Source: a bacterium (GTDB taxonomy: Bacteria > DRYD01). Taken from it: 64,000 bases of DNA. Under the pieces are notes generated by a model, which was not told the DNA's origin, did no database searches, and saw only the letters and a list, made by a program, of their open reading frames with translations. Below are positions 33,914-48,766 of the stretch, one piece after another. Position 1 is the first letter of the stretch. Every line of letters starts with the position of its first letter. Where the stretch lies: NCBI GenBank assembly GCA_030549815.1, contig JAUQQQ010000007.1:59014-123013 (forward strand). The letters are read 5' to 3'. The translations under genes were made by a program, and so were the position numbers.

Positions 33914-34730
33914 TCCTTTTTCCCTTTTATTTGTCTACCCTTTTATATTTTTCCCTACATATATTTCAAAATTTCTTGTTTTAGGATTTTTACCAACCCT
34001 TATTCATATTTTCTCCCACTTGTAATTCATTTTTCTTTTTTTGGTATCAAAATTCATTCCACATATTATTACTTTCTCTTCCAACACATACTTACCATAA
34101 TATTCCTTTTCTCTTATCTGCTCTATTGCTTTCTCTTTATCTCTGCCTACCTTTATCTCGAAAATATACACCCTCTTGTTTGGCGTTCTTAGAATAATAT
34201 CAATTCTTCCTAATTTCGTATGCAATTCTGCATTACATTCAAAACCCGTTGAATACAAATACACATACAAAAACGAGTTTATACTCTTCTCATCATTCCC
34301 ATATAGATCATACGGTATATTCTCTAACAATTTGTTTATCATGTACTCTATTTCCTGAAAATCACAATTTTCCAATGCTCTTCTTAATGGATTTATCTCA
34401 CTATCTTCTCCTTTCCATTCTCTTACAAATTCTCTTAACAAGTTTTCATTAAAACTTATCTGCACCTCCTTATTTGGATATCTCAATTTATAAAACTTCC
34501 TATCATATTCTTCTTTTTCATAATCTATCGTTAAATATCCTGTCTGATACATTAATGCTTCTATACTTATCTTCTCTACATCTACTCTATTCAAGTCTTC
34601 TTCTGAAACCATTAACTCCAAATTTGGCATCTCATACTTTTTCTGTCTTATCTATTTTATCAACACTTCCGGCTTCCCTGTCTCATACCAATAACTACTT
34701 TTTTTCTCTCCTGAAAATACAATAACACAT

Positions 34731-34750
34731 CAGGGGTAGGGGGCCCCCTT
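34731..34750. repeat. GC-rich micro-insert, copy 2 (inverted)
   Basis: On the minus strand AAGGGGGCCCCCTACCCCTGA interrupts the frame between ...NPLI and VLLYFQE. Removing about 19 bases restores a normal family sequence. It matches the insert at 35505-35526 in the opposite orientation at 16 of about 17 positions. Confidence 0.6.
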
Positions 34751-35504
34751 AATCAATGGATTGTATATTTTACTACTTAGCCACCAATAGCCATTATACC
34801 ACTCCCTTATCTCTAAAAATTCTTCTTCACTTTCTATTATTTCTCCAAACACATCTTCCAATTCCCTTTCTGTATATCCACATATATCTCCATATTCCTT
34901 ACTTAAACTTATATCTCTCAATTGGTTTAATCCTGAAAACAAAGACACTTTTGCAAATTTACTTATTCCCGTTATAAAGACAAACTTTAAGTACTTATCC
35001 AATCCCTTTATTGTTTGATAAAACCCCTTCAATACTTCCCTTATTTCATTGGCCAATCCCACTTTCTCTATATTATCCAATATAGGCTTATCATATTCAT
35101 CCACCAATAATACCACTTTTTTTTCACTCTTCTCGTTTATACTCATTATCAATTCACTAAATTTTTTAAAATACAACCTTTCCATTAACCTTATTCTATG
35201 TCTCCTAGCGTAGAAATTAACACAAGAAATTATGTATTCTTTCAATTCCTCTTTACTTTCCACTTTCCCCTCATCAAATGCTATCCTTACTACCGGATAC
35301 TTTTCCTTCCAATCCCAATTGTTTTCTAAATACAAACCTTCGAATAATTCTTTTTTTCCTTCAAATGCACAACGTAAGGTATCAACAAACAAGCTTTTAC
35401 CGAATCGTCTAGGACGCGATAAAAAATAATACTTTCCCCCTTCCATCAAATTCTTTACATACTTCGTCTTATCCACATAATAGTATCCCCCCGTTCTTAT
35501 CTCC

Positions 35505-35526
35505 ATAGAGGGGACCCCTACCCCAC
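35505..35526. repeat. GC-rich micro-insert, copy 1
   Basis: On the plus strand AGAGGGGACCCCTACCCCAC separates SSF from EIRTGGYYY in the nuclease gene. Deleting about 20-23 bases rejoins the frame. The inverse copy lies about 760 bp away, so the two flank the ATPase part of the gene. Confidence 0.6.
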
Positions 35527-36201: not shown

Positions 36202-36924
36202 CTAAGTAAATAAATACTGCAATTCGTTAAACAGGGTTATTTCTAAATCAAAAAGTTTATAAGGATCAATATAAAAACTTTCTAAATCTTTAATAAAAGG
36301 AACAAAAACAACTTTCTCAAAGTTTTTAGCAAGCTCCTCATAAACATCCATCCCTTTAACGTCATTTTCAAAAATCCTATTAACAAAAAGAATAGGAATT
36401 TCTTTTTTCATTTCCTTTAATAATTTTACAAACTTTAGGGTAGTATGGAAAGATAAAATTGAATTAGAAGAAACAACCCAAAACTCTGCCTTGGGTAAGA
36501 ACCTAAATATGTCAAGAATAGGATCAGTGAGAGTAGGAGGAGTATCAAAAAGAAGTAAATTAATATCTTTCCAATTAGTAATCGTAAGTAATTCTAAAAA
36601 AACATCCGTTATTTCTTCCCCCCTTAAAGCTAAAGGATTATCTTTTGAGAAAAAATTAACAGATAGCAAAAAAACATTTTTCAAAACCTCCGGCAAAACT
36701 ATACCATCTTCTTCCTTAAAAGTAGAAGTAGAATTAAAGATTATATGTAAAGAAGAGCCGGTAAAATCCAAATCGCAAACCCCAACTTTAACAAACCTTG
36801 AAAACACCAATGAAAGCAAAAAAGTCAAAGTAGACTTACCAACCCCACCTTTAGAACCACATATAACTATTATTTTTTTATTTTCTAAATTCTTTTTTAT
36901 ACCTTCTACTCTTATATCTATCAT
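36202..36924 (-). CDS. MinD/Mrp-type ATPase, likely nickel-insertion partner of HypA (HypB-like)
   Basis: A 240-residue SIMIBI ATPase with ICGSKGGVGKSTLTFLLSL (deviant Walker A with the signature Lys), VCDLDFTGSS (Walker A') and LLFDTPPTLTDP (Walker B). No membrane-targeting helix of MinD is evident at the C-terminus. The gene lies just downstream of hypA. In Thermococcus the partner of HypA is a MinD-type ATPase rather than the GTPase HypB, and this arrangement fits that. The hydrogenase protease at 48335 supports a nickel hydrogenase in the cell. ParA-type plasmid function is less likely. Confidence 0.75.
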   Translation of the reverse strand: MIDIRVEGIKKNLENKKIIVICGSKGGVGKSTLTFLLSLVFSRFVKVGVCDLDFTGSSLHIIFNSTSTFKEEDGIVLPEVLKNVFLLSVNFFSKDNPLALRGEEITDVFLELLTITNWKDINLLLFDTPPTLTDPILDIFRFLPKAEFWVVSSNSILSFHTTLKFVKLLKEMKKEIPILFVNRIFENDVKGMDVYEELAKNFEKVVFVPFIKDLESFYIDPYKLFDLEITLFNELQYLFT

Positions 36925-37019
36925 TACTACATTATTATTAACAAAAATTTTTCCAATGTAGTTTTATCTAAAAATAAGAAAACTTAGTATTATTAATCCA
37001 AAACAAGAATTTACTATTT

Positions 37020-37388
37020 TTATTTTGTTTCGCATTTTTCAATAAAAACGCCCCTACCTTCCACAATCTTAAAGTCGTTAGAAAAACATTTAGGACACTT
37101 AACAAAGATATGAATAGATTCAGGTAAAAAATGTATATCTTCCTTCTCCTCTTCACTTAAATCAATTTCATCATAATAAAATTCATTAGCACAAACATTA
37201 CATTTAAATTTCGCTTTTACCTCTTGAAAAGATACATTCACATCCATTCCATTAAGCTCAGATAACAAAGCATTTTTAAACAAATCAATATCTATTTGTT
37301 GAATTTGACCAATATATACAATAATTCTATTACAATTAAGGGATAAAATAGTTTCTTTAGCAGCTCTTGCTAATGAAAATTCATGCAT
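37020..37388 (-). CDS. hypA: Hydrogenase nickel-incorporation protein HypA
   Basis: The protein starts MHEFSLARA; the N-terminal Met-His binds nickel, so ATG 37388 is the functional start, not the TTG four codons upstream. A zinc domain with CNVC and CPKC lies in the second half. About 122 residues, typical for HypA. It delivers nickel to the hydrogenase large subunit (or urease in some species). A MinD-type ATPase gene follows, and the stop of the deacylase gene is 4 bp upstream. Confidence 0.92.
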   Translation of the reverse strand: MHEFSLARAAKETILSLNCNRIIVYIGQIQQIDIDLFKNALLSELNGMDVNVSFQEVKAKFKCNVCANEFYYDEIDLSEEEKEDIHFLPESIHIFVKCPKCFSNDFKIVEGRGVFIEKCETK

Positions 37389-37392
37389 GTTA

Positions 37393-38961
37393 TTAATCAA
37401 AATCCCTTAAAACCTTTCCATTCTTACAAATAACTGTTCCATTTTCGAAGGCTTTTTTTCCATTAACAAAAACATTAACTATCCCCTTAGCCAAAGATTT
37501 AGGATTAGAATAAGTAGCTCTATCTTCTATTTCTTTATAATTAAAAACAACAAGGTCAGCAAAAAATCCCTTCTTTATAGCTCCCCTATTCTTTATGCCA
37601 AACTTTAAAGCTGGAAAATAAGTCATCTTAAAAACTGCATCAGACAAAGATATATCTTTCCTTTCTTTAACGTAATAAGAAATAAATTTAACGAATGATC
37701 CAAATGTTCTCGGATGAGGAAACGCAGGAGTATCACAGTTTCTTACGGCACTATCGCTTGCTACCATAACAAAATCTTGTTTTGCTATATAATCCACTTC
37801 CTCCTGATCCATTAAGAAATAAATAGCTCCCAAGTCATATTCTTCAATTCTCATTAATTCTATCACAGTCCTTGCCTCACTTAATTTCATATCCCGAGCT
37901 ATTTCACTTATCGACATACCAAGATACTTGCTAAGTTTAGGGTTATATGCTTCAGAAATTATTATCTTATCCCAGGGAGTATGAGGATATTTTTCTATTT
38001 CCTCTGCAACCATTTCAGGATCCTCACTTATCTTTTTGATTATTTCTTCTATCGACCCTTCTAAATATTGTGGAGGCAATACTTGAGATAACCCCGTATT
38101 AGAAGCGTTATAAGGATACTGATCAGCAGCTATGTTTATACCACTATCAATCGCTTCTCTTATCTTTTCACAAGCTTGCAAAGCCTTACCTCTTCCACTT
38201 CCTGCAGCTTTTAAATGTGATATTTGAAAATTAACCCCTGAAAGCCTTGATATATCTATACTCTCTTGTATTGCTTCCAAAAGTGCAGAACTTTCTGACC
38301 TCATGTGATTAGTAACAACCCTTTCTTTCTTTTTTACAACCTTAGCTAATTCAACCAGCTCTTCCAAATCAGAAAACCTTCCTGGTATGTATATTAAACC
38401 AAGTGATAAACCAATTGCTCCTTCATCTAACGCTTTTTCAACTTCAAATTTCATTTGCTGCAATTTTTCATAGTCTAATTTAGTATTAGAATAACCAACA
38501 ACTTCCGCTCTTATCTGACCATGGCCAACTAAATAAGCATGGTTAACAGCAATCTCAGTTTTTTCTAAAAAATTCAAATACTCTCCTACTGTTCTCCATT
38601 GAATATCCTCTATCCCATAAGATTTTGCTTCCGTTAAAATACTACTAATCGTATTATTTGTTGGACAAACAGAAAATCCACAATTACCAGATATAACTGT
38701 AGTAACTCCTTGTGAGATCGCACTTTCTGCCTCAGGATAAGCTATAATAGTTAAATCACTATGACTATGAACATCTATAAACCCTGGACAAATATAATTT
38801 CCTTCTATATCGATAACCTCATAATTATCCTGATTTATTTTATCTTCAAAAATAACGTCTTGTATAATCTCGTTTTCTATTATAATACTGCCTTTTTTTA
38901 TTTCAGAATTCTTCTGCCCGTCAACAATAAACCCATTTTTTAATAAAAGTTTCTTTGTCAT
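37393..38961 (-). CDS. N-acyl-D-amino-acid deacylase family amidohydrolase
   Basis: A 522-residue metal amidohydrolase. It has CPGFIDVHSHSDLT (first metal ligands), GVTTVISGNCGFSVCP, VVTNHMRSES, FQISHLKAAG, VMVASDSAVRNCDTPAF and the C-terminal KKGFFADLVVFN. These are typical for D-aminoacylase and related dihydropyrimidinase-type enzymes. It hydrolyses N-acyl-D-amino acids or a related amide; the exact substrate is unknown. It is upstream of hypA, with no obvious functional link. Confidence 0.88.
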   Translation of the reverse strand: MTKKLLLKNGFIVDGQKNSEIKKGSIIIENEIIQDVIFEDKINQDNYEVIDIEGNYICPGFIDVHSHSDLTIIAYPEAESAISQGVTTVISGNCGFSVCPTNNTISSILTEAKSYGIEDIQWRTVGEYLNFLEKTEIAVNHAYLVGHGQIRAEVVGYSNTKLDYEKLQQMKFEVEKALDEGAIGLSLGLIYIPGRFSDLEELVELAKVVKKKERVVTNHMRSESSALLEAIQESIDISRLSGVNFQISHLKAAGSGRGKALQACEKIREAIDSGINIAADQYPYNASNTGLSQVLPPQYLEGSIEEIIKKISEDPEMVAEEIEKYPHTPWDKIIISEAYNPKLSKYLGMSISEIARDMKLSEARTVIELMRIEEYDLGAIYFLMDQEEVDYIAKQDFVMVASDSAVRNCDTPAFPHPRTFGSFVKFISYYVKERKDISLSDAVFKMTYFPALKFGIKNRGAIKKGFFADLVVFNYKEIEDRATYSNPKSLAKGIVNVFVNGKKAFENGTVICKNGKVLRDFD

Positions 38962-42452: not shown

Positions 42453-43667
42453 TCAAGCATTTATAAATTCATCATACTTTTCTTCTAATTTCGGATCCAC
42501 TATTAAAGAAAGCAAATAATCACCAAATTCCCTGGTTGTAGCACCATCATTTCTACCTGTTATAACAACCTTCCTTTCAAATTGATTAGCAACATCAAGA
42601 GCCATATCTATTTTTTTAGCAATACTTTGAAATCCTATATATTCGAGCATCATTGAAGCAGCTTTGATAATGCTGGAAGGATCCGCATAATGTTGCCTAT
42701 TTTCCTGAACCATCCTGGGAGCACTACCATGTATAGCTTCAAACATAGCATATTTACTGCCAATATTAGCAGATCCTGCGGTTCCAACTCCACCTTGTAT
42801 CTCAGCAGCCTCATCTGTTAAAATATCCCCGAAAAGATTAGGTAAAACAAAAACCTGAAATTCACTTCTCCTTTTAACATCTATCAATTTAGCAGTCATT
42901 ATATCAATAAACCAATCATCTGCTTGTATTTCAGGATAATCCCTTGCAATCTCATAGAAAACTTTTAGAAATATACCATCAGTTGTCTTTATAACATTAG
43001 CCTTATTAACAGCAGTTACCCTTTTAAATCCATTATTCTTTGCATATTCAAAAGCCATTTTTATTATTCTTCTACTACCTGCATAACTAATAAGTCTAAA
43101 ATCTATACCAAAAGTGTTTTCAAATTCTATTCCCTTCGATCCAAGAGCATAAAGATCTTCTGTATTTTCCCTAAAAAATATCCAATTAATCTTCTCGTTC
43201 AAAACCTTAACAGGTCTAACATTGGCAAAAAGGTCGAATTCTTTTCTAAGGAAAACATTAGCACTTTCTATATTAGGAATGCCTTCCCCTGCTTTCGGAG
43301 TAGTAGTAGGTCCTTTTAGAAATACATTACATTCCCTAATTTTTTCAAGTACATCGTCAGGAACAGGTTTCATTTCCTTTATTCTTCTTTCTAAAGTCAA
43401 CCCTTCAATATCTTTAAAAATAACATTTCCTTTTTCTATTTCATCTTTTAATAAAATCTGCAATATTCTCTTTGCTTCATCAACTATATAGGGTCCAATG
43501 CCATCTCCCCCGACAAATCCAATTTTAATAGGCCTCAACTTAGTAAAATCAATAAACTCAGTATCAGAAGAAATTTTCTTTACTCTTTCCATTTGTTCTC
43601 TTATAATATCCTCAAAATATTTCTTTGCTTGTTCCCATAAATTATCCTCAATCTTAATTATTTTCAT
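42453..43667 (-). CDS. icd: Isocitrate dehydrogenase (NADP type, IcdA family)
   Basis: About 404 residues. IKIGFVGGDGIGPYIVDEA, GPTTTPKAGEGIPNIESAN (the Ser-Asn substrate loop), FRENTEDLYAL, KANVIKTTDGIFL, VLPNLFGDILTDEAAEI and the C-terminal EAIHGSAPRMV form the isocitrate dehydrogenase signature. AAAGGGGAGAG is well spaced from the ATG at 43667; the GTG-type start at 43703 would add 12 residues and overlap the sigma factor stop. It feeds 2-oxoglutarate and NADPH. Confidence 0.92.
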   Translation of the reverse strand: MKIIKIEDNLWEQAKKYFEDIIREQMERVKKISSDTEFIDFTKLRPIKIGFVGGDGIGPYIVDEAKRILQILLKDEIEKGNVIFKDIEGLTLERRIKEMKPVPDDVLEKIRECNVFLKGPTTTPKAGEGIPNIESANVFLRKEFDLFANVRPVKVLNEKINWIFFRENTEDLYALGSKGIEFENTFGIDFRLISYAGSRRIIKMAFEYAKNNGFKRVTAVNKANVIKTTDGIFLKVFYEIARDYPEIQADDWFIDIMTAKLIDVKRRSEFQVFVLPNLFGDILTDEAAEIQGGVGTAGSANIGSKYAMFEAIHGSAPRMVQENRQHYADPSSIIKAASMMLEYIGFQSIAKKIDMALDVANQFERKVVITGRNDGATTREFGDYLLSLIVDPKLEEKYDEFINA

Positions 43668-43689
43668 ACCACTCTCCCCTTTTACATTC

Positions 43690-44382
43690 TTAAATTTCAG
43701 CATTATCTACAATACTTTTAACTTTCTTTCTTATTCTTTGAAGTGCATTATCAACAGATTTAGAGGGAATGCCCATTTTCTTAGCTATTTCACTATAAGT
43801 AAATCCTTGAGATTTTAATTTTAATATTTCCCTTTCCCTTGGGGTTAATTTAGAAAACAGAGTTTCTTTTATTTTACTTTTCTCAATAAAATCTATTATA
43901 GCATCCTCTATAGATTCCTCCTGATAGGCACCATGTATTATTTTAGAAGGTATAATATAGTCATATAAATTTTTTTCAGTAGATCCTTCATCAAAAATAT
44001 TACTTTCTAGAGAAATTGGATTTTTTAAAATTTTCGATTTATTTCTATTAGAAGACTTTATAGCAGTAGTAATCTGTCTTTGAACACAGAGATTAACAAA
44101 ATTCAAAAAATTACCTTTATTTTTATCAAAATCTTGAATAGCTTTAAGAAATCCTATGTAAGCCTCCTGAACTATATCCTCTCGTTCAGCACCAGGAATG
44201 TAAAAAGGTATAACTTTTGAAAACAAAAATTTAGAATATTTTTTTATTAATACTTTCATCGCTTCTTTATTTCCTTGTTTTGCCAATTCAACAAGTTCCT
44301 CATCACTTAAATTTTCCAATTCATTATTATTAAATATACCTTCAATATTTAATTTATCTTTTTCTTTTCTTTTCTTTGACAT
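43690..44382 (-). CDS. RNA polymerase sigma-70 family factor (SigH-like)
   Basis: 230 residues. Region 2 is VIPFYIPGAEREDIVQEAYIG and FDKNKGNFLNFVNLCVQRQI; region 4 ends with LTPREREILKLKSQGFTYSE, followed by EIAKKMGIPSKSVDNALQRI. The lack of region 1 and 3 fits the Spo0H/SigH-type alternative sigma group. It starts within the ferredoxin stop (TAATG) and ends close to icd, so it is embedded in the energy-metabolism operon and may control it. Confidence 0.9.
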   Translation of the reverse strand: MSKKRKEKDKLNIEGIFNNNELENLSDEELVELAKQGNKEAMKVLIKKYSKFLFSKVIPFYIPGAEREDIVQEAYIGFLKAIQDFDKNKGNFLNFVNLCVQRQITTAIKSSNRNKSKILKNPISLESNIFDEGSTEKNLYDYIIPSKIIHGAYQEESIEDAIIDFIEKSKIKETLFSKLTPREREILKLKSQGFTYSEIAKKMGIPSKSVDNALQRIRKKVKSIVDNAEI

Positions 44383-44771
44383 TATACATTCCCACTTTTC
44401 ACTATAATCCTTTGATCAAAAGTTTTTCTTTCATCATATTCAAAATACTCATCCATCCTGACAACATCCTGTTGATTATACATTGCAAATTCATAAGTAT
44501 TTTCCATTTCAATTACTTTAGTAGGACAAATTTGTTCACAAAGTCCACAAAATATACAAGCACTGACATTTATTTCAAACTTTTCAACTATTGTCCTTCC
44601 CAATTCATCTTGCAATACTTCCATCCTTATAGCTTTAACAGGACAAATTTGAGCACAGTAACCACAAGCAATACAAACACCACTTTCACAACTTAAACAT
44701 CTAATTCCTTCATCTATACTATAATCATTTATATCCACATTATTCCTGACATACTCAGGTAATTTTGCCAT
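44382..44771 (-). CDS. NuoI-like ferredoxin, C-terminal 2x[4Fe-4S] half
   Basis: 129 residues with CIACGYCAQICPVKAI and CIFCGLCEQICPTKVI, then FEFAMYNQQDVVRMDEYF, the normal C-terminal order of NuoI. An additional pair CLSCESG precedes the first cluster. It lacks the N-terminal amphipathic and GxRG part of NuoI, which is instead at the start of the upstream gene. It should pass electrons between the flavin arm and the quinone end of complex I. It is 10 bp downstream of the GltD-type gene. Confidence 0.85.
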   Translation of the reverse strand: MAKLPEYVRNNVDINDYSIDEGIRCLSCESGVCIACGYCAQICPVKAIRMEVLQDELGRTIVEKFEINVSACIFCGLCEQICPTKVIEMENTYEFAMYNQQDVVRMDEYFEYDERKTFDQRIIVKSGNV

Positions 44772-44781
44772 AAATTCCCTC

Positions 44782-46443
44782 CTAAACAGCTACTGCTTTT
44801 CTATAAACTTTATTAACATTAAGAGGTCCCAGTATTTTAACAAAATCTTGGCTTAGAATAGGTGGAGTCTTATTGGTTAAAAAGTAATGAACTTTTTCAG
44901 CAGTTCTATTTCCACTGGCCAAAGCAACTATTGCAGGCTGTGGACCATAGCAAGCTTCACCTGCGGCAAAGACTTTTTTCCTCTTTGTTTGTCCAAACCT
45001 ATAAACAAAGCCATTAGCCATCGTATCAAAACCATCAACGACAATCTCTCCTCTCGGCCCAACAATATCCTTCGGAGCAAACGGAATATCTATATCTCTT
45101 GAAACAGCTAATATTATAGTATCACATGGTATAACAAATTCTTCGTTTGTTCTGATTATTTTTTTCCTACCATTAGGCAAAAGAGGACCATAAACACATT
45201 TGGCAACTTTTAGACCTTTGATATTATTATTTTCATCAATAACAACCTCAAAAGGCATAACTTGGCAAATAAATTCAATATCATCATCTTCTTCAGCTTC
45301 AACTTTTTCTTCTTCGCTAACAGGTATATCTTCCCTGGCTAATATATCAACAATAGTAACTTTATCGGAGAAAACTTTTTTACAAGTCCTTGCAGCATCT
45401 ATACCTGTTCCACCTCCACCAATAACAACAACTTCCTTACCTATCTTATAAGTTCTTTGTCCCGTATTCCAATCTTCTAAAAACCATTCAGCTTGAATCA
45501 AATTGACCTTCTCAGCATTTTTCAAATTCAATCTTCTTGGCTTAGTTGCACCAGCTGCAATAATGACCGCATCATAATTTTCTTCTAAATCACTAAACAA
45601 TATTGCACAAGAAGATAGATGATTTATTTGGTCTTTATAATTTTCCAATTCCTTTACAGAAACAATATTTTGATATTTTTCTTTTTCTTCATCCCCTATA
45701 ATAGTAACATTATAAAAAATTCTTCCATTTTCAGTAAAAGTTATTAGATTTTCGTATTCTTTATTCATTAAATCCTTATCCAACCTAAAGAAAGCAACTC
45801 CAGAATACAGGTATCCTCCACAAAAATTGAATTTTTCAAACAAATCAACTTTATGTCCGAATCTGAGTAATCTATGAGCAGCAGCAATACCTGCAGGCCC
45901 TGCTCCTATAACGGCTATTCTCTTATTAGTTGGTTCAGAAACGATTGTATATTTAATAGTTTCCTTTCCCCGGTAATAATTTTTAATATTATACTCACTG
46001 ATCGCTTTTTTTATTAATCTAATAGATATTGGTTTATGATCCTGCACTCCTCTACTACATGTGGTTTCACAAGGAGCAGTACATAAATTACCAAAACAAA
46101 AAGCAGTGGGATTATTAACAGTTTCTTCACTTAAAGATTTTATAAAATTACCCTCTCCTGCTAACATTACATATCCTCTTGCATCAACATTTGCAGGACA
46201 TCCTCTTACACAAGGTGGTAAATTAAAAGAATAATTCAAATAATTTGTTCTCTTATATATTGTTTCAACAGTATTAAATGCTCTAACTCTAACTTTTCCT
46301 CTCCATCTTGCAAATGGTTCTCTTATAGTCAAAGGATAATTAACCGTATATATTGGTTCTTTCAAAAAATACCTATAGGTTATATTCAATCCCTCTATTA
46401 ATCTTCTTAATCCATCAGCCAAGAAATTTAGAGTTCCAATCAT
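44782..46443 (-). CDS. NuoI N-terminal segment fused to a GltD-type flavoprotein
   Basis: 553 residues. The first 50 (LIEGLNITYRYFLKEP, YTVNYPL, REPFARWRGKVRV) match the N-terminus of NuoI, which anchors the ferredoxin to the membrane arm. After about residue 70 it becomes GltD-like: PPCVRGCPANVD and FCFGNLCTAPCETTC for the clusters, AVIGAGPAGIAAAHRL for FAD, EVVVIGGGGTGIDAARTC for NAD(P), and AAGEACYGPQPAIVALASGN at the end. NAD(P)H oxidation feeding the NuoI clusters is likely. It is between nuoH and the NuoI ferredoxin half. Confidence 0.88.
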   Translation of the reverse strand: MIGTLNFLADGLRRLIEGLNITYRYFLKEPIYTVNYPLTIREPFARWRGKVRVRAFNTVETIYKRTNYLNYSFNLPPCVRGCPANVDARGYVMLAGEGNFIKSLSEETVNNPTAFCFGNLCTAPCETTCSRGVQDHKPISIRLIKKAISEYNIKNYYRGKETIKYTIVSEPTNKRIAVIGAGPAGIAAAHRLLRFGHKVDLFEKFNFCGGYLYSGVAFFRLDKDLMNKEYENLITFTENGRIFYNVTIIGDEEKEKYQNIVSVKELENYKDQINHLSSCAILFSDLEENYDAVIIAAGATKPRRLNLKNAEKVNLIQAEWFLEDWNTGQRTYKIGKEVVVIGGGGTGIDAARTCKKVFSDKVTIVDILAREDIPVSEEEKVEAEEDDDIEFICQVMPFEVVIDENNNIKGLKVAKCVYGPLLPNGRKKIIRTNEEFVIPCDTIILAVSRDIDIPFAPKDIVGPRGEIVVDGFDTMANGFVYRFGQTKRKKVFAAGEACYGPQPAIVALASGNRTAEKVHYFLTNKTPPILSQDFVKILGPLNVNKVYRKAVAV

Positions 46444-46458
46444 ATTAATCTCCTCTCC

Positions 46459-47820
46459 CTATGTAAATTTTGGGATATTTCTATACTTTGTTGATAATTT
46501 AACATTTCTTTTAGAAGCCAAATAAACAACAAAAGCAAATAAAATCCAAGAAAGTACAGGAATCTTATTAAATAACAGGACATCAATAGCAGAAACCATC
46601 ATTGAAATAAGAGTTATTGGAATAAATGCCTTCCAAGCCAAATCCATAAGATGGTCTATTCTTATTCTTGGATAAGTCCATCTAAAGAACATTATCAAAC
46701 CAACCACAACAAAAGCTTTTAATATGATCCAAATAAAATTATCATTTATAGCCATAATATAACCATAAATTCCAATGCTTTGAAGCAAAGGAGAAAGTAA
46801 ATTAAGTATTGAGTGAGGAATAAGAGAATATCCCCCTAAAAATATCGTTGCAATAATTGCACTATTAAAAAACAAATATCCATATTCCGCTAAATAAAAT
46901 AAAGCAAAGGTCATTGAACTGTATTCAGTAACAAATCCTGCAACCAATTCAGATTCAGCTTCTGGTAAATCAAAAGGAGCTCTATTGTTTTCAGCAACCA
47001 TAGACCACAAGAATATCACAAACATTAAAGGACTATAGAAAATCAACCAAAAATGATCATTTTGAAAACTAACTATATCAACTATTTTGAAACTACCCGT
47101 AAAAACCATAACAGCGAGAAAAGATAGAAGAAGAGGAATTTCGTAACTAAGCATTTGAGCAACTGTTCTCAAACCACCTAAAAGAGAATATTTATTGTTA
47201 GAAGCCCAAGCAGCCAAAACAAGAGATAAAACCATATAACTTGAAACAGCAAAAATAAATAACAATCCAACATCAAGGTTACCTAATAAAATGTAGTTAT
47301 TCGAAAAAGGAAACATCCCAAAAGCAACAACTACCGTTGTAAAAGCAAGTATAGGAGAAAGAATATACAAAAACGGGTAAGATCCTTGGGGAATCATTAT
47401 TTCTTTTTGTATTAGTTTAATAACATCAGCTATAGGTTGAACCAATCCCCCTAACCACATATTTTTAGAACCTGCTTTTAAAAGAAAAGGTAAATTAACC
47501 AAAGTAGGCCCCATCCTACCTTGTATCTTAGCAGACAATTTTCTTTCTATCCAAACATTAACAATAACACTAACCATAAGCACCGTGATAACTAAGATAA
47601 TACCTATAACAGAAGTAGCAATAACCATTGGCAAATTACCAAAATTCTTCCATATACCACCATTAACACCTAAAATATTATTAATCAAAGCCAAAACTCC
47701 AAGCATATCCATTAAATAGTAAATAGGTAAAATTAATAAAATTAAAGCAAAAGAGATAAGAAAATAAAAAACGATTGTTTTGATTGTAAAATTGACAAAT
47801 CTTAAGATATCATTTTTCAT
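46459..47820 (-). CDS. nuoH: NADH-quinone oxidoreductase subunit H
   Basis: A 453-residue membrane protein with about nine helices. NVWIERKLSAKIQGRMGPT, GLVQPIADVIKLIQKE, FSLWSMVAENNRAPFDLPEA-like residues (LWSMVAENNRAPFDLPEAE) and the ELVAGFVTEYSSMTFALFYL block identify NuoH, the quinone-site subunit. It is about 100 residues longer than the E. coli form, mainly at the N-terminus (residues 1-75) and C-terminus. No other membrane-arm genes are nearby, so the rest of complex I must be elsewhere. It starts the operon. Confidence 0.93.
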   Translation of the reverse strand: MKNDILRFVNFTIKTIVFYFLISFALILLILPIYYLMDMLGVLALINNILGVNGGIWKNFGNLPMVIATSVIGIILVITVLMVSVIVNVWIERKLSAKIQGRMGPTLVNLPFLLKAGSKNMWLGGLVQPIADVIKLIQKEIMIPQGSYPFLYILSPILAFTTVVVAFGMFPFSNNYILLGNLDVGLLFIFAVSSYMVLSLVLAAWASNNKYSLLGGLRTVAQMLSYEIPLLLSFLAVMVFTGSFKIVDIVSFQNDHFWLIFYSPLMFVIFLWSMVAENNRAPFDLPEAESELVAGFVTEYSSMTFALFYLAEYGYLFFNSAIIATIFLGGYSLIPHSILNLLSPLLQSIGIYGYIMAINDNFIWIILKAFVVVGLIMFFRWTYPRIRIDHLMDLAWKAFIPITLISMMVSAIDVLLFNKIPVLSWILFAFVVYLASKRNVKLSTKYRNIPKFT

Positions 47821-48334: not shown

Positions 48335-48766
48335 TTATAATTTTATTTTTCTATCGATAAAATTTTTTAGAAATTCGATAGCTTTGTTCATATTTTTAAT
48401 ACATTCTGGACTTAATTCATTTTTCCAAGAAAAATCATATCCCCTTATCTTTAAAATATATCCCTCCAAATTACTGTTATAGTACTTTGCAAGGGAAAAA
48501 ATATTTTTTAGGGAAATGTGATGAGAAAAAGAAGATAATTTTTCGACACTTTCCATTTTTTCAAAAGAAAAACAATCTACATCTAAAGATGCATCAACAA
48601 ATATGACCATATCAAATTTTACTATCTTATCAATCAAATCAAAGTCAGGATAATTAATAACTATCTTTTCAATTTGATCATATTTAAAATCTTCAACAAA
48701 TTTTATTCCTAATCCATCGTCAGCTCTTAATTCATTACCAACACCAACAAGTAAAATCGTTTTCAC
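48335..48766 (-). CDS. Hydrogenase maturation protease (HycI/HybD, M52)
   Basis: 143 residues. LVGVGNELRADDGLG has the Asp that senses nickel, VIFVDASLDVD the second ligand and FSHHISLKNIF the His. It cuts the C-terminal tail of the [NiFe]-hydrogenase large subunit after nickel insertion. It starts with GTG. No hydrogenase structural gene is in the window; hypA and its ATPase are 11 kb away. It is the last gene in a run from the phosphodiesterase-fold gene at 52030. Confidence 0.88.
   Translation of the reverse strand: MKTILLVGVGNELRADDGLGIKFVEDFKYDQIEKIVINYPDFDLIDKIVKFDMVIFVDASLDVDCFSFEKMESVEKLSSFSHHISLKNIFSLAKYYNSNLEGYILKIRGYDFSWKNELSPECIKNMNKAIEFLKNFIDRKIKL

What the first reader, a model, noticed from the sequence alone, without database searches (positions are those of the whole stretch)
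44382..47820. Rebuilt complex I input arm: NuoI split, with its N-terminus fused to GltD
The first 50 residues of the GltD-type protein match the membrane-anchoring N-terminus of NuoI, and the NuoI two-cluster ferredoxin half is a separate downstream gene. nuoH is directly upstream. The simplest reading is that a GltD flavoprotein was inserted into NuoI, making a NAD(P)H-oxidising module wired directly to the quinone arm and replacing NuoEFG. The seam (RWRGKVRV to VRGCPANVD) is visible in the sequence; the electron path is inference. The same operon encodes a sigma factor and isocitrate, malate and citrate enzymes, so it may take NADPH from Icd.
Basis: partly seen in the sequence, partly recalled or inferred. 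Interest (0 to 1): 0.75.

Follow-up and report, generated by a model that had tools for sequence, protein, structure and literature searches.

The report
GltD flavoprotein spliced into complex I
In an uncultivated hot-spring bacterial lineage, the complex I subunit NuoI has been cut in two and a GltD-type flavoprotein put between the halves, so this respiratory proton pump probably takes its electrons through a different NADH-oxidising module from the usual NuoEFG.

Summary
Residues 12-54 of the 553-aa GltD-type protein match the NuoI N-terminus (E about 1e-9; best of 5000 shuffles 0.11). The 129-aa ferredoxin is the rest of NuoI. The two tile a NuoI profile (positions 14-55 and 63-149) without overlap. 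The order nuoH, fusion, ferredoxin, sigma factor is kept in all six sequenced members of one Calescibacterota family and was found nowhere else. No intact NuoI and no complex-I-type NuoG was found. NuoABCDHJKLMN exist, scattered over the genome.

The GltD part is StnC-type. StnC is itself a GltD inserted into NuoG. The fusion keeps the FAD and nucleotide domains and StnC's lysine cluster ligand, but has lost the usual NADPH motif (YRR to D-I-L), so I predict NADH. The two cysteines that StnC-type GltD carries in its tail (RCLxC) are missing from the fusion and appear at the start of the ferredoxin. This suggests one iron-sulfur cluster shared between the two proteins.

NADPH from Icd is not supported, and replacement of NuoEFG is likely but unproven: hydrogenase-type NuoE/NuoF/HoxU genes exist elsewhere. 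NuoI-GltD fusions of another order are already known (PRK13984). Verdict: a new variant of a known kind.

The parts
46459..47820 (-). nuoH, 453 aa, membrane subunit that anchors NuoI in complex I; N-terminal extension with one extra predicted TM segment (aa 15-33)
   Evidence: PF00146 3.4e-100; best NCBIfam model NuoH, 296 bits against a cut-off of 305; hydropathy
44782..46443 (-). NuoI(N)-GltD fusion, 553 aa
   Evidence: ORF; PF07992 5.4e-24, PF14691 9.6e-10; orthologues in 5 other genomes, 75-87% identical
46282..46443 (-). aa 1-54 of the fusion: NuoI N-terminal membrane-anchor segment, predicted helix aa 2-26, ending at RWRGKVRVR
   Evidence: NuoI N-terminal profile E 4.8e-10 against 0.11 for best shuffle; profile positions 14-55; helix in model
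46009..46212 (-). aa 78-145: GltD iron-sulfur domain; C82, C121, C125 + K145 = StnC-like FAD-proximal cluster; C78, C129 = half of the distal cluster
   Evidence: alignment to StnC (C104, C108, C147, C151, C155, K170) and homologues; StnC K170 ligand from PMC10482914
45346..45348 (-). D366 at the end of strand beta-2 of the nucleotide domain, where 17 of 20 other GltD homologues have the Y of the NADPH motif YRR
   Evidence: strand 361-366
44382..44771 (-). NuoI C-terminal half, 129-aa 2[4Fe-4S] ferredoxin subunit
   Evidence: TIGR01971 1.5e-22 from model position 41; profile positions 63-149
44688..44702 (-). RCLSC (aa 24-28) at the ferredoxin N-terminus: GltD-tail motif, proposed to complete the GltD distal cluster in trans
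   Evidence: invariant in 6 orthologues; same motif at the GltD C-terminus in 15 of 16 homologues of this type, and in StnC
43690..44382 (-). sigma-70-family factor overlapping the ferredoxin stop codon; follows the ferredoxin in all six genomes
   Evidence: PF04542/PF08281; synteny
42453..43703 (-). isocitrate/isopropylmalate dehydrogenase family (Icd); downstream in this genus only, probably not part of the module
   Evidence: PF00180; absent downstream in the sister genus

Best explanation
This is the electron-input subunit pair of a quinone-reducing, proton-pumping complex I in Calescibacterota, rebuilt by inserting an StnC-type GltD flavoprotein into the loop of NuoI between its membrane-anchor segment and its two-cluster ferredoxin, followed by a gene split in the GltD tail. 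The NuoI N-terminus anchors the flavoprotein on NuoH. NADH (predicted, rather than NADPH) passes a hydride to FAD. Electrons then go singly to a FAD-proximal [4Fe-4S] cluster (C82, C121, C125, K145), to a distal [4Fe-4S] cluster built by both proteins (C78 and C129 of the fusion, C25 and C28 of the ferredoxin), to the two NuoI clusters N6a and N6b, to N2 in NuoB, and to quinone. The module thus does the work that NuoEFG does in ordinary complex I. Shown by computation: the domain make-up, the tiling, the conservation, the presence of the other subunits and the residue replacements. Inferred: the assembly, the shared cluster, NADH as substrate, the electron path and the replacement of NuoEFG.
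For: NuoI N-terminal homology and exact tiling of the two halves. Synteny nuoH-fusion-ferredoxin-sigma in all 6 family members. Only one strong NuoI-like match per genome, and always this one. NuoA, B, D, H, J, K, L, M, N found in this genome and NuoC in a sister genus, of quinone-type Nuo families. StnC is the best solved-structure match by sequence and by fold, and its FAD-proximal cluster uses a lysine at the position of K145. Of 16 StnC-type homologues, 15 carry RCxxC at the C-terminus; the 4 others examined carry it just before the first GltD Cys; the fusion has neither, while its ferredoxin has RCLSC, invariant in 6 of 6, at a place where 0 of 28 NuoI have any Cys. YRR to D-I-L or D-L-L in 6 of 6 against YRR kept in 17 of 20 others, with D366 ending strand beta-2 in the model. 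NuoF-like and HoxU-like proteins elsewhere match StnB/HydB and NiFe-HydA better than complex I NuoF/NuoG (341 against 255 bits; 166 against 102 bits).
Against: A NuoE, NuoF and HoxU-like set (without the large NuoG domain) is present in the family, also in a genome where no hydrogenase was found, so an ordinary-style NADH module could still feed complex I. Apart from RCLSC, the ferredoxin's first 23 residues are not clearly GltD-tail-like (110 of 2757 scored shuffles that keep RCLSC do as well), so the trans-ligand idea rests on the motif and on ligand counting. Loss of YRR suggests but does not prove NADH. No complex could be modelled, and aa 28-77 of the fusion are predicted with low confidence.
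Confidence: 0.6

Rival explanations
1. Dual input: complex I keeps an NADH module made of the dispersed NuoE, NuoF and HoxU-like proteins, docked on the NuoI ferredoxin, and GltD is a second flavin site (NADPH or NADH entry, or transhydrogenase).
For: A NuoE/NuoF/HoxU set occurs in the family, including in G005 where no hydrogenase was found. All nuo genes are scattered, so absence of linkage is uninformative. Colman et al. 2016 annotated a nearly complete nuo complex in Calescamantes (PMC4791363).
Against: NuoF and HoxU resemble hydrogenase/transhydrogenase subunits more than complex I NuoF/NuoG. One NuoF lies by hypE/hypF, another U-like protein lies in the HoxYH operon, and in the sister genus NuoE-NuoF lie beside a 2-oxoacid:ferredoxin oxidoreductase beta subunit. 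If GltD uses NADH, two NADH sites would be redundant.
Confidence: 0.22
2. Soluble or reverse use: the GltD-ferredoxin pair works mainly as an NAD(P)+-reducing outlet, so the enzyme runs in reverse (quinol to NAD) or exchanges electrons with soluble ferredoxin.
For: The GltD module of Stn works in both directions (PMC10482914). Hydrogenase and 2-oxoacid:ferredoxin oxidoreductase genes are present.
Against: Heme-copper oxidase and nosZ genes reported for Calescamantes point to forward respiration (PMC4791363). The NuoI N-terminus and the NuoH neighbourhood point to a membrane-bound input arm.
Confidence: 0.12
3. Chance or secondary resemblance: the first ~54 residues are just a membrane anchor of an ordinary GltD-family enzyme, and the neighbouring ferredoxin is a coincidental neighbour of nuoH.
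For: Pfam and NCBIfam do not report NuoI in the first 75 residues.
Against: Profile E about 1e-9 against shuffles, exact tiling with the ferredoxin, no other strong NuoI-like match in six genomes.
Confidence: 0.03

Closest known systems
NuoI-GltD C-terminal fusion, NF010590/PRK13984 (e.g. L081, L083, L084; also rings in Thermotoga maritima)
   Same: NuoI and GltD joined in one protein, in operons with NuoB, NuoC, NuoD, NuoH and antiporter subunits
   Different: Order is whole NuoI first, GltD behind it; the CxxC ligands are in the same chain; GltD forms its own clade (99/99) that excludes the Calescibacterota proteins; full-length hits in 17 of 386 sampled genomes, none in this family
StnC of the Stn transhydrogenase (PDB 8oh5_C; Sporomusa ovata)
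   Same: GltD inserted inside a complex-I-family iron-sulfur subunit, tail motif RCLxC just before the host resumes, Lys ligand on the FAD-proximal cluster
   Different: Host is NuoG, not NuoI; soluble bifurcating enzyme; uses NADPH with YRR kept; single chain
Nuo-Bfu (Geobacter and others), complex I with BfuABC in place of NuoEFG (PMC9304861)
   Same: Quinone-type complex I whose NADH module was exchanged for another flavin module
   Different: The exchanged module is NuoF-like BfuB with FMN and ferredoxin input, not GltD with FAD; no GltD insertion into NuoI is described
11-subunit complex I without NuoEFG (Desulfitobacterium and others)
   Same: NuoABCDHIJKLMN without a linked N-module (PMC11238625)
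   Different: There nuoI is a normal gene and the donor unknown; here a dedicated flavoprotein is built into NuoI
Bacterial complex I, 14 subunits (Thermus, E. coli)
   Same: NuoH, NuoB, NuoD, NuoLMN and the two NuoI halves are homologous
   Different: No complex-I-type NuoG found, NuoI split, FAD-GltD next to NuoH

Membership tests
Respiratory complex I (quinone-type Nuo) | Membrane and Q-module subunits NuoABCDHJKLMN | tested here: met
   NuoC was seen only in the sister genus; NuoL and NuoM exceed the TIGR01974 and TIGR01972 cut-offs
Respiratory complex I (quinone-type Nuo) | NuoI as one polypeptide with anchor and 2[4Fe-4S] | tested here: not met
   Both parts present but in two proteins with GltD between
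Respiratory complex I (quinone-type Nuo) | NuoEFG N-module of complex I type | tested here: inconclusive
   NuoE/NuoF and HoxU-like proteins exist but resemble hydrogenase/transhydrogenase subunits more
GltD-like flavoproteins, StnC/PRK12771 type | Fer4_20 + FAD/NAD(P) Rossmann pair | tested here: met
   predicted fold mean pLDDT 79.5
GltD-like flavoproteins, StnC/PRK12771 type | RCxxC pair in the C-terminal tail of the same chain | tested here: not met
   Absent from the fusion in 6 of 6, present on the ferredoxin instead
GltD-like flavoproteins, StnC/PRK12771 type | NADPH motif YRR | tested here: not met
   D-I-L or D-L-L in 6 of 6; YRR in 17 of 20 other homologues
PRK13984 NuoI-GltD fusion | NuoI ferredoxin N-terminal to GltD in one chain, same clade | tested here: not met
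   No match at 1e-100 in the family; separate clade
Bfu (BfuABC) module | NuoF-like subunit with C-terminal ferredoxin domain | tested here: not met
   The NuoF-like 480/491-aa proteins end after the NuoF iron-sulfur region
Respiratory complex I (quinone-type Nuo) | NADH:quinone reduction coupled to proton pumping | not testable with these tools
   Needs biochemistry

The most novel reading that the evidence does not exclude
A proton-pumping complex I whose NADH site is an FAD/GltD module spliced into NuoI instead of the FMN/NuoF module, with a [4Fe-4S] cluster whose ligands come from two separately encoded proteins at the point where one subunit was split.
Probability: 0.5. Interest if true: 0.78.

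Novelty: new variant of a known kind. Interest (0 to 1): 0.62.

Why it matters
Complex I is thought to have grown by docking different electron-input modules onto a conserved quinone/pump core. This would be an independent exchange of the NADH site for one of a different fold and flavin (GltD/FAD for NuoF/FMN), made by insertion into NuoI rather than by docking. With PRK13984 (fusion behind NuoI), StnC (insertion into NuoG) and Nuo-Bfu, it shows that GltD and NuoF modules are exchangeable input plugs. The ligand arrangement gives a sharp test: the ferredoxin should complete an iron-sulfur cluster of the flavoprotein.

Tried and rejected
Pfam and NCBIfam alone would have missed the NuoI N-terminus; a dedicated profile was needed. 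First structure model with six near-identical rows was useless (pLDDT 42.7); 30 rows gave 79.5 but left aa 28-77 weak. Tested whether the ferredoxin N-terminus as a whole is a GltD tail: not significant beyond RCLSC. Considered that the fusion belongs to the PRK13984 family: rejected by domain order and tree. Considered a frameshift or assembly artefact: rejected, the split is in six genomes with different spacers. Literature searches for a GltD/NuoI insertion found nothing; the library lacks most subscription papers. No plasmid match.

Full report
What is there. The window is from a 1.59-Mb genome, 90% complete, in 23 contigs. Its close relatives in public genomes include a 'Candidatus Calescibacterium' MAG, so the family belongs to Calescibacterota, earlier called Calescamantes (the phylum name is my own knowledge). 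On the minus strand run nuoH (46459-47820), a 553-aa GltD-type protein (44782-46443), a 129-aa ferredoxin (44382-44771), a sigma factor, and Icd, Mdh and citrate synthase. Spacers in the first part are 15 bp, 10 bp and a stop/start overlap.

The observation. A profile built from the N-termini of 28 NuoI proteins of other lineages finds the first 75 residues of the 553-aa protein and its five orthologues at E 2e-10 to 1e-9. The best of 5000 shuffles has 0.11. On a full NuoI profile the fusion covers positions 14-55 and the ferredoxin 63-149, so the two proteins together make one NuoI with a gap only in the loop before the first cluster motif. The order nuoH-fusion-ferredoxin-sigma is the same in all six members of the family, in two genera, 75-87% identical for the fusion. 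No other strong NuoI-like match exists in any of them (a second, weak ferredoxin-like match in the window's genome scores 34.9 bits). In 386 genomes from 327 genera no genome outside the family matched the N-terminal part: the other matches begin at query position 37 or later and cover the GltD start. A pattern scan of 84,980 species genomes found only this family (a scan that reaches close relatives only).

The rest of complex I. NuoA+B, NuoD, NuoJ+K, NuoL and NuoM+N are present but lie in five places apart from this one. NuoC was seen in a sister genus. NuoL, NuoM and NuoN match the quinone-type Nuo families best. Two NuoF-like proteins and two HoxU/NuoG-like proteins exist. One of the latter is in an operon with a NiFe hydrogenase (HoxYH type by my reading); one NuoF lies beside hypE and hypF; in the sister genus NuoE-NuoF lie beside a 2-oxoacid:ferredoxin oxidoreductase beta subunit. 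Against solved structures, NuoF (sister genus) matches transhydrogenase and hydrogenase subunits (341-312 bits) better than complex I NuoF (255 bits), and HoxU matches a NiFe-hydrogenase HydA (166 bits) better than complex I NuoG (102 bits). So I found no complex-I-type NuoG, but a generic NADH-oxidising diaphorase is encoded.

The GltD part. Its best solved relative by sequence and by fold of the model is StnC (8oh5_C). StnC is a NuoG with GltD inserted at residues 102-565, and its FAD-proximal cluster is held by three cysteines and K170 (PMC10482914). The alignment puts K145 of the fusion on K170 and C82, C121, C125 on StnC C108, C147, C151. Which cysteines hold which cluster is my assignment, by analogy with dihydropyrimidine dehydrogenase and NfnB (general knowledge). 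The second GltD cluster needs two more cysteines besides C78 and C129. In canonical GltD, and in the known NuoI-GltD fusions, these come from an RCLxC just before the first GltD cysteine (L131, L081, L083, L084). In 15 of 16 homologues of the StnC type they come from an RCxxC in the tail; the one exception, L122, has a frame that ends earlier. StnC itself has RCLECGC there. The Calescibacterota fusion has neither in 6 of 6, but its ferredoxin begins with ...EGIRCLSCESG, invariant in 6 of 6, and ordinary NuoI has no cysteine there (0 of 28). The simplest reading is that the gene split fell in the GltD tail, and that the second cluster is completed in trans by the ferredoxin. The counter-test is fair to state: the 23 residues before RCLSC are not significantly GltD-like.

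Nucleotide. Where 17 of 20 other homologues have YRR (the usual NADPH signature of GltD proteins; role from general knowledge), the six orthologues have D-I-L or D-L-L. The aspartate (D366) is the last residue of strand beta-2 in the model, the place where NADH-binding Rossmann folds usually carry an acid (general knowledge). I therefore predict NADH. The link with Icd as NADPH source is not supported: Icd, Mdh and citrate synthase follow only in one genus.

Mechanism proposed. NADH to FAD (fusion), to [4Fe-4S] with C82/C121/C125/K145, to the shared [4Fe-4S] with C78/C129 and C25'/C28', to NuoI clusters N6a and N6b, to N2 in NuoB, to quinone. The NuoI N-terminal helix (model aa 2-26) keeps the flavoprotein at NuoH. 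Domain content and residues are shown; assembly, direction and substrate are inferred.

Relation to known systems. Exchange of the complex I input module is known: Nuo-Bfu (PMC9304861), ferredoxin-fed and N-module-free complexes (PMC11238625). Fusion of NuoI and GltD is known as family PRK13984, with whole NuoI in front; full-length hits occur in 17 of 386 sampled genomes, and the family also rings in Thermotoga maritima. They form their own clade (99/99) apart from the Calescibacterota proteins, which sit on a very long branch. Insertion of GltD into NuoG is known as StnC. The insertion into NuoI with later fission is, as far as I could find, undescribed. Colman et al. 2016 reported only a 'nearly complete' nuo complex in this lineage (PMC4791363). 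I therefore call it a new variant of a known kind.

What remains open. Whether the dispersed NuoE/NuoF/HoxU also feed complex I (0.22), and whether the enzyme is run as NADH dehydrogenase in vivo. Both need biochemistry or complexome data.

Noticed in passing
window 46459-47820: NuoH has an N-terminal extension of about 70 residues with an extra predicted TM segment (aa 15-33), seen also in the relatives; it may be linked to holding the altered NuoI.
   Followed up: partly
G000 C3, C7, C10, C14, C15 (L072, L014, L149, L130, L015): The complex I genes of this family are broken into at least six separate places (NuoAB, NuoD, NuoH-I, NuoJK, NuoL, NuoMN), so linkage cannot be used to assign subunits.
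   Followed up: yes
L163 4644-6617, L164 5420-7469: In the sister genus a NuoE-NuoF pair lies beside a 2-oxoacid:ferredoxin oxidoreductase beta subunit, which suggests a soluble NADH/ferredoxin link.
   Followed up: partly
L071 6130-9684: A NiFe hydrogenase (HoxYH type) whose diaphorase subunit is a 526-aa NuoG-like protein with only a short remnant of the molybdopterin domain.
   Followed up: no
window 36202-37400 and 48335-48766: Likely hydrogenase maturation genes by eye (HypA-like, MinD/HypB-like ATPase, HycI-like protease) on both sides of the region, far from the hydrogenase itself.
   Followed up: no
window 43690-44382: A sigma-70-family factor overlaps the ferredoxin stop codon and stays with the nuoH-GltD-ferredoxin cluster in both genera, although the genes behind it differ.
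   Followed up: partly
window 34004-35506; L071 12430-15495; L016 851-2368: Multi-copy genes with the start ...YYYVDKT...FLSRPRRFGKSL (AAA-ATPase/nuclease-like), some broken into pieces.
   Followed up: no
L081, L084: Two of the three known-order NuoI-GltD fusions examined also lack the YRR motif, so loss of the NADPH signature may recur when GltD is tied to NuoI.
   Followed up: partly
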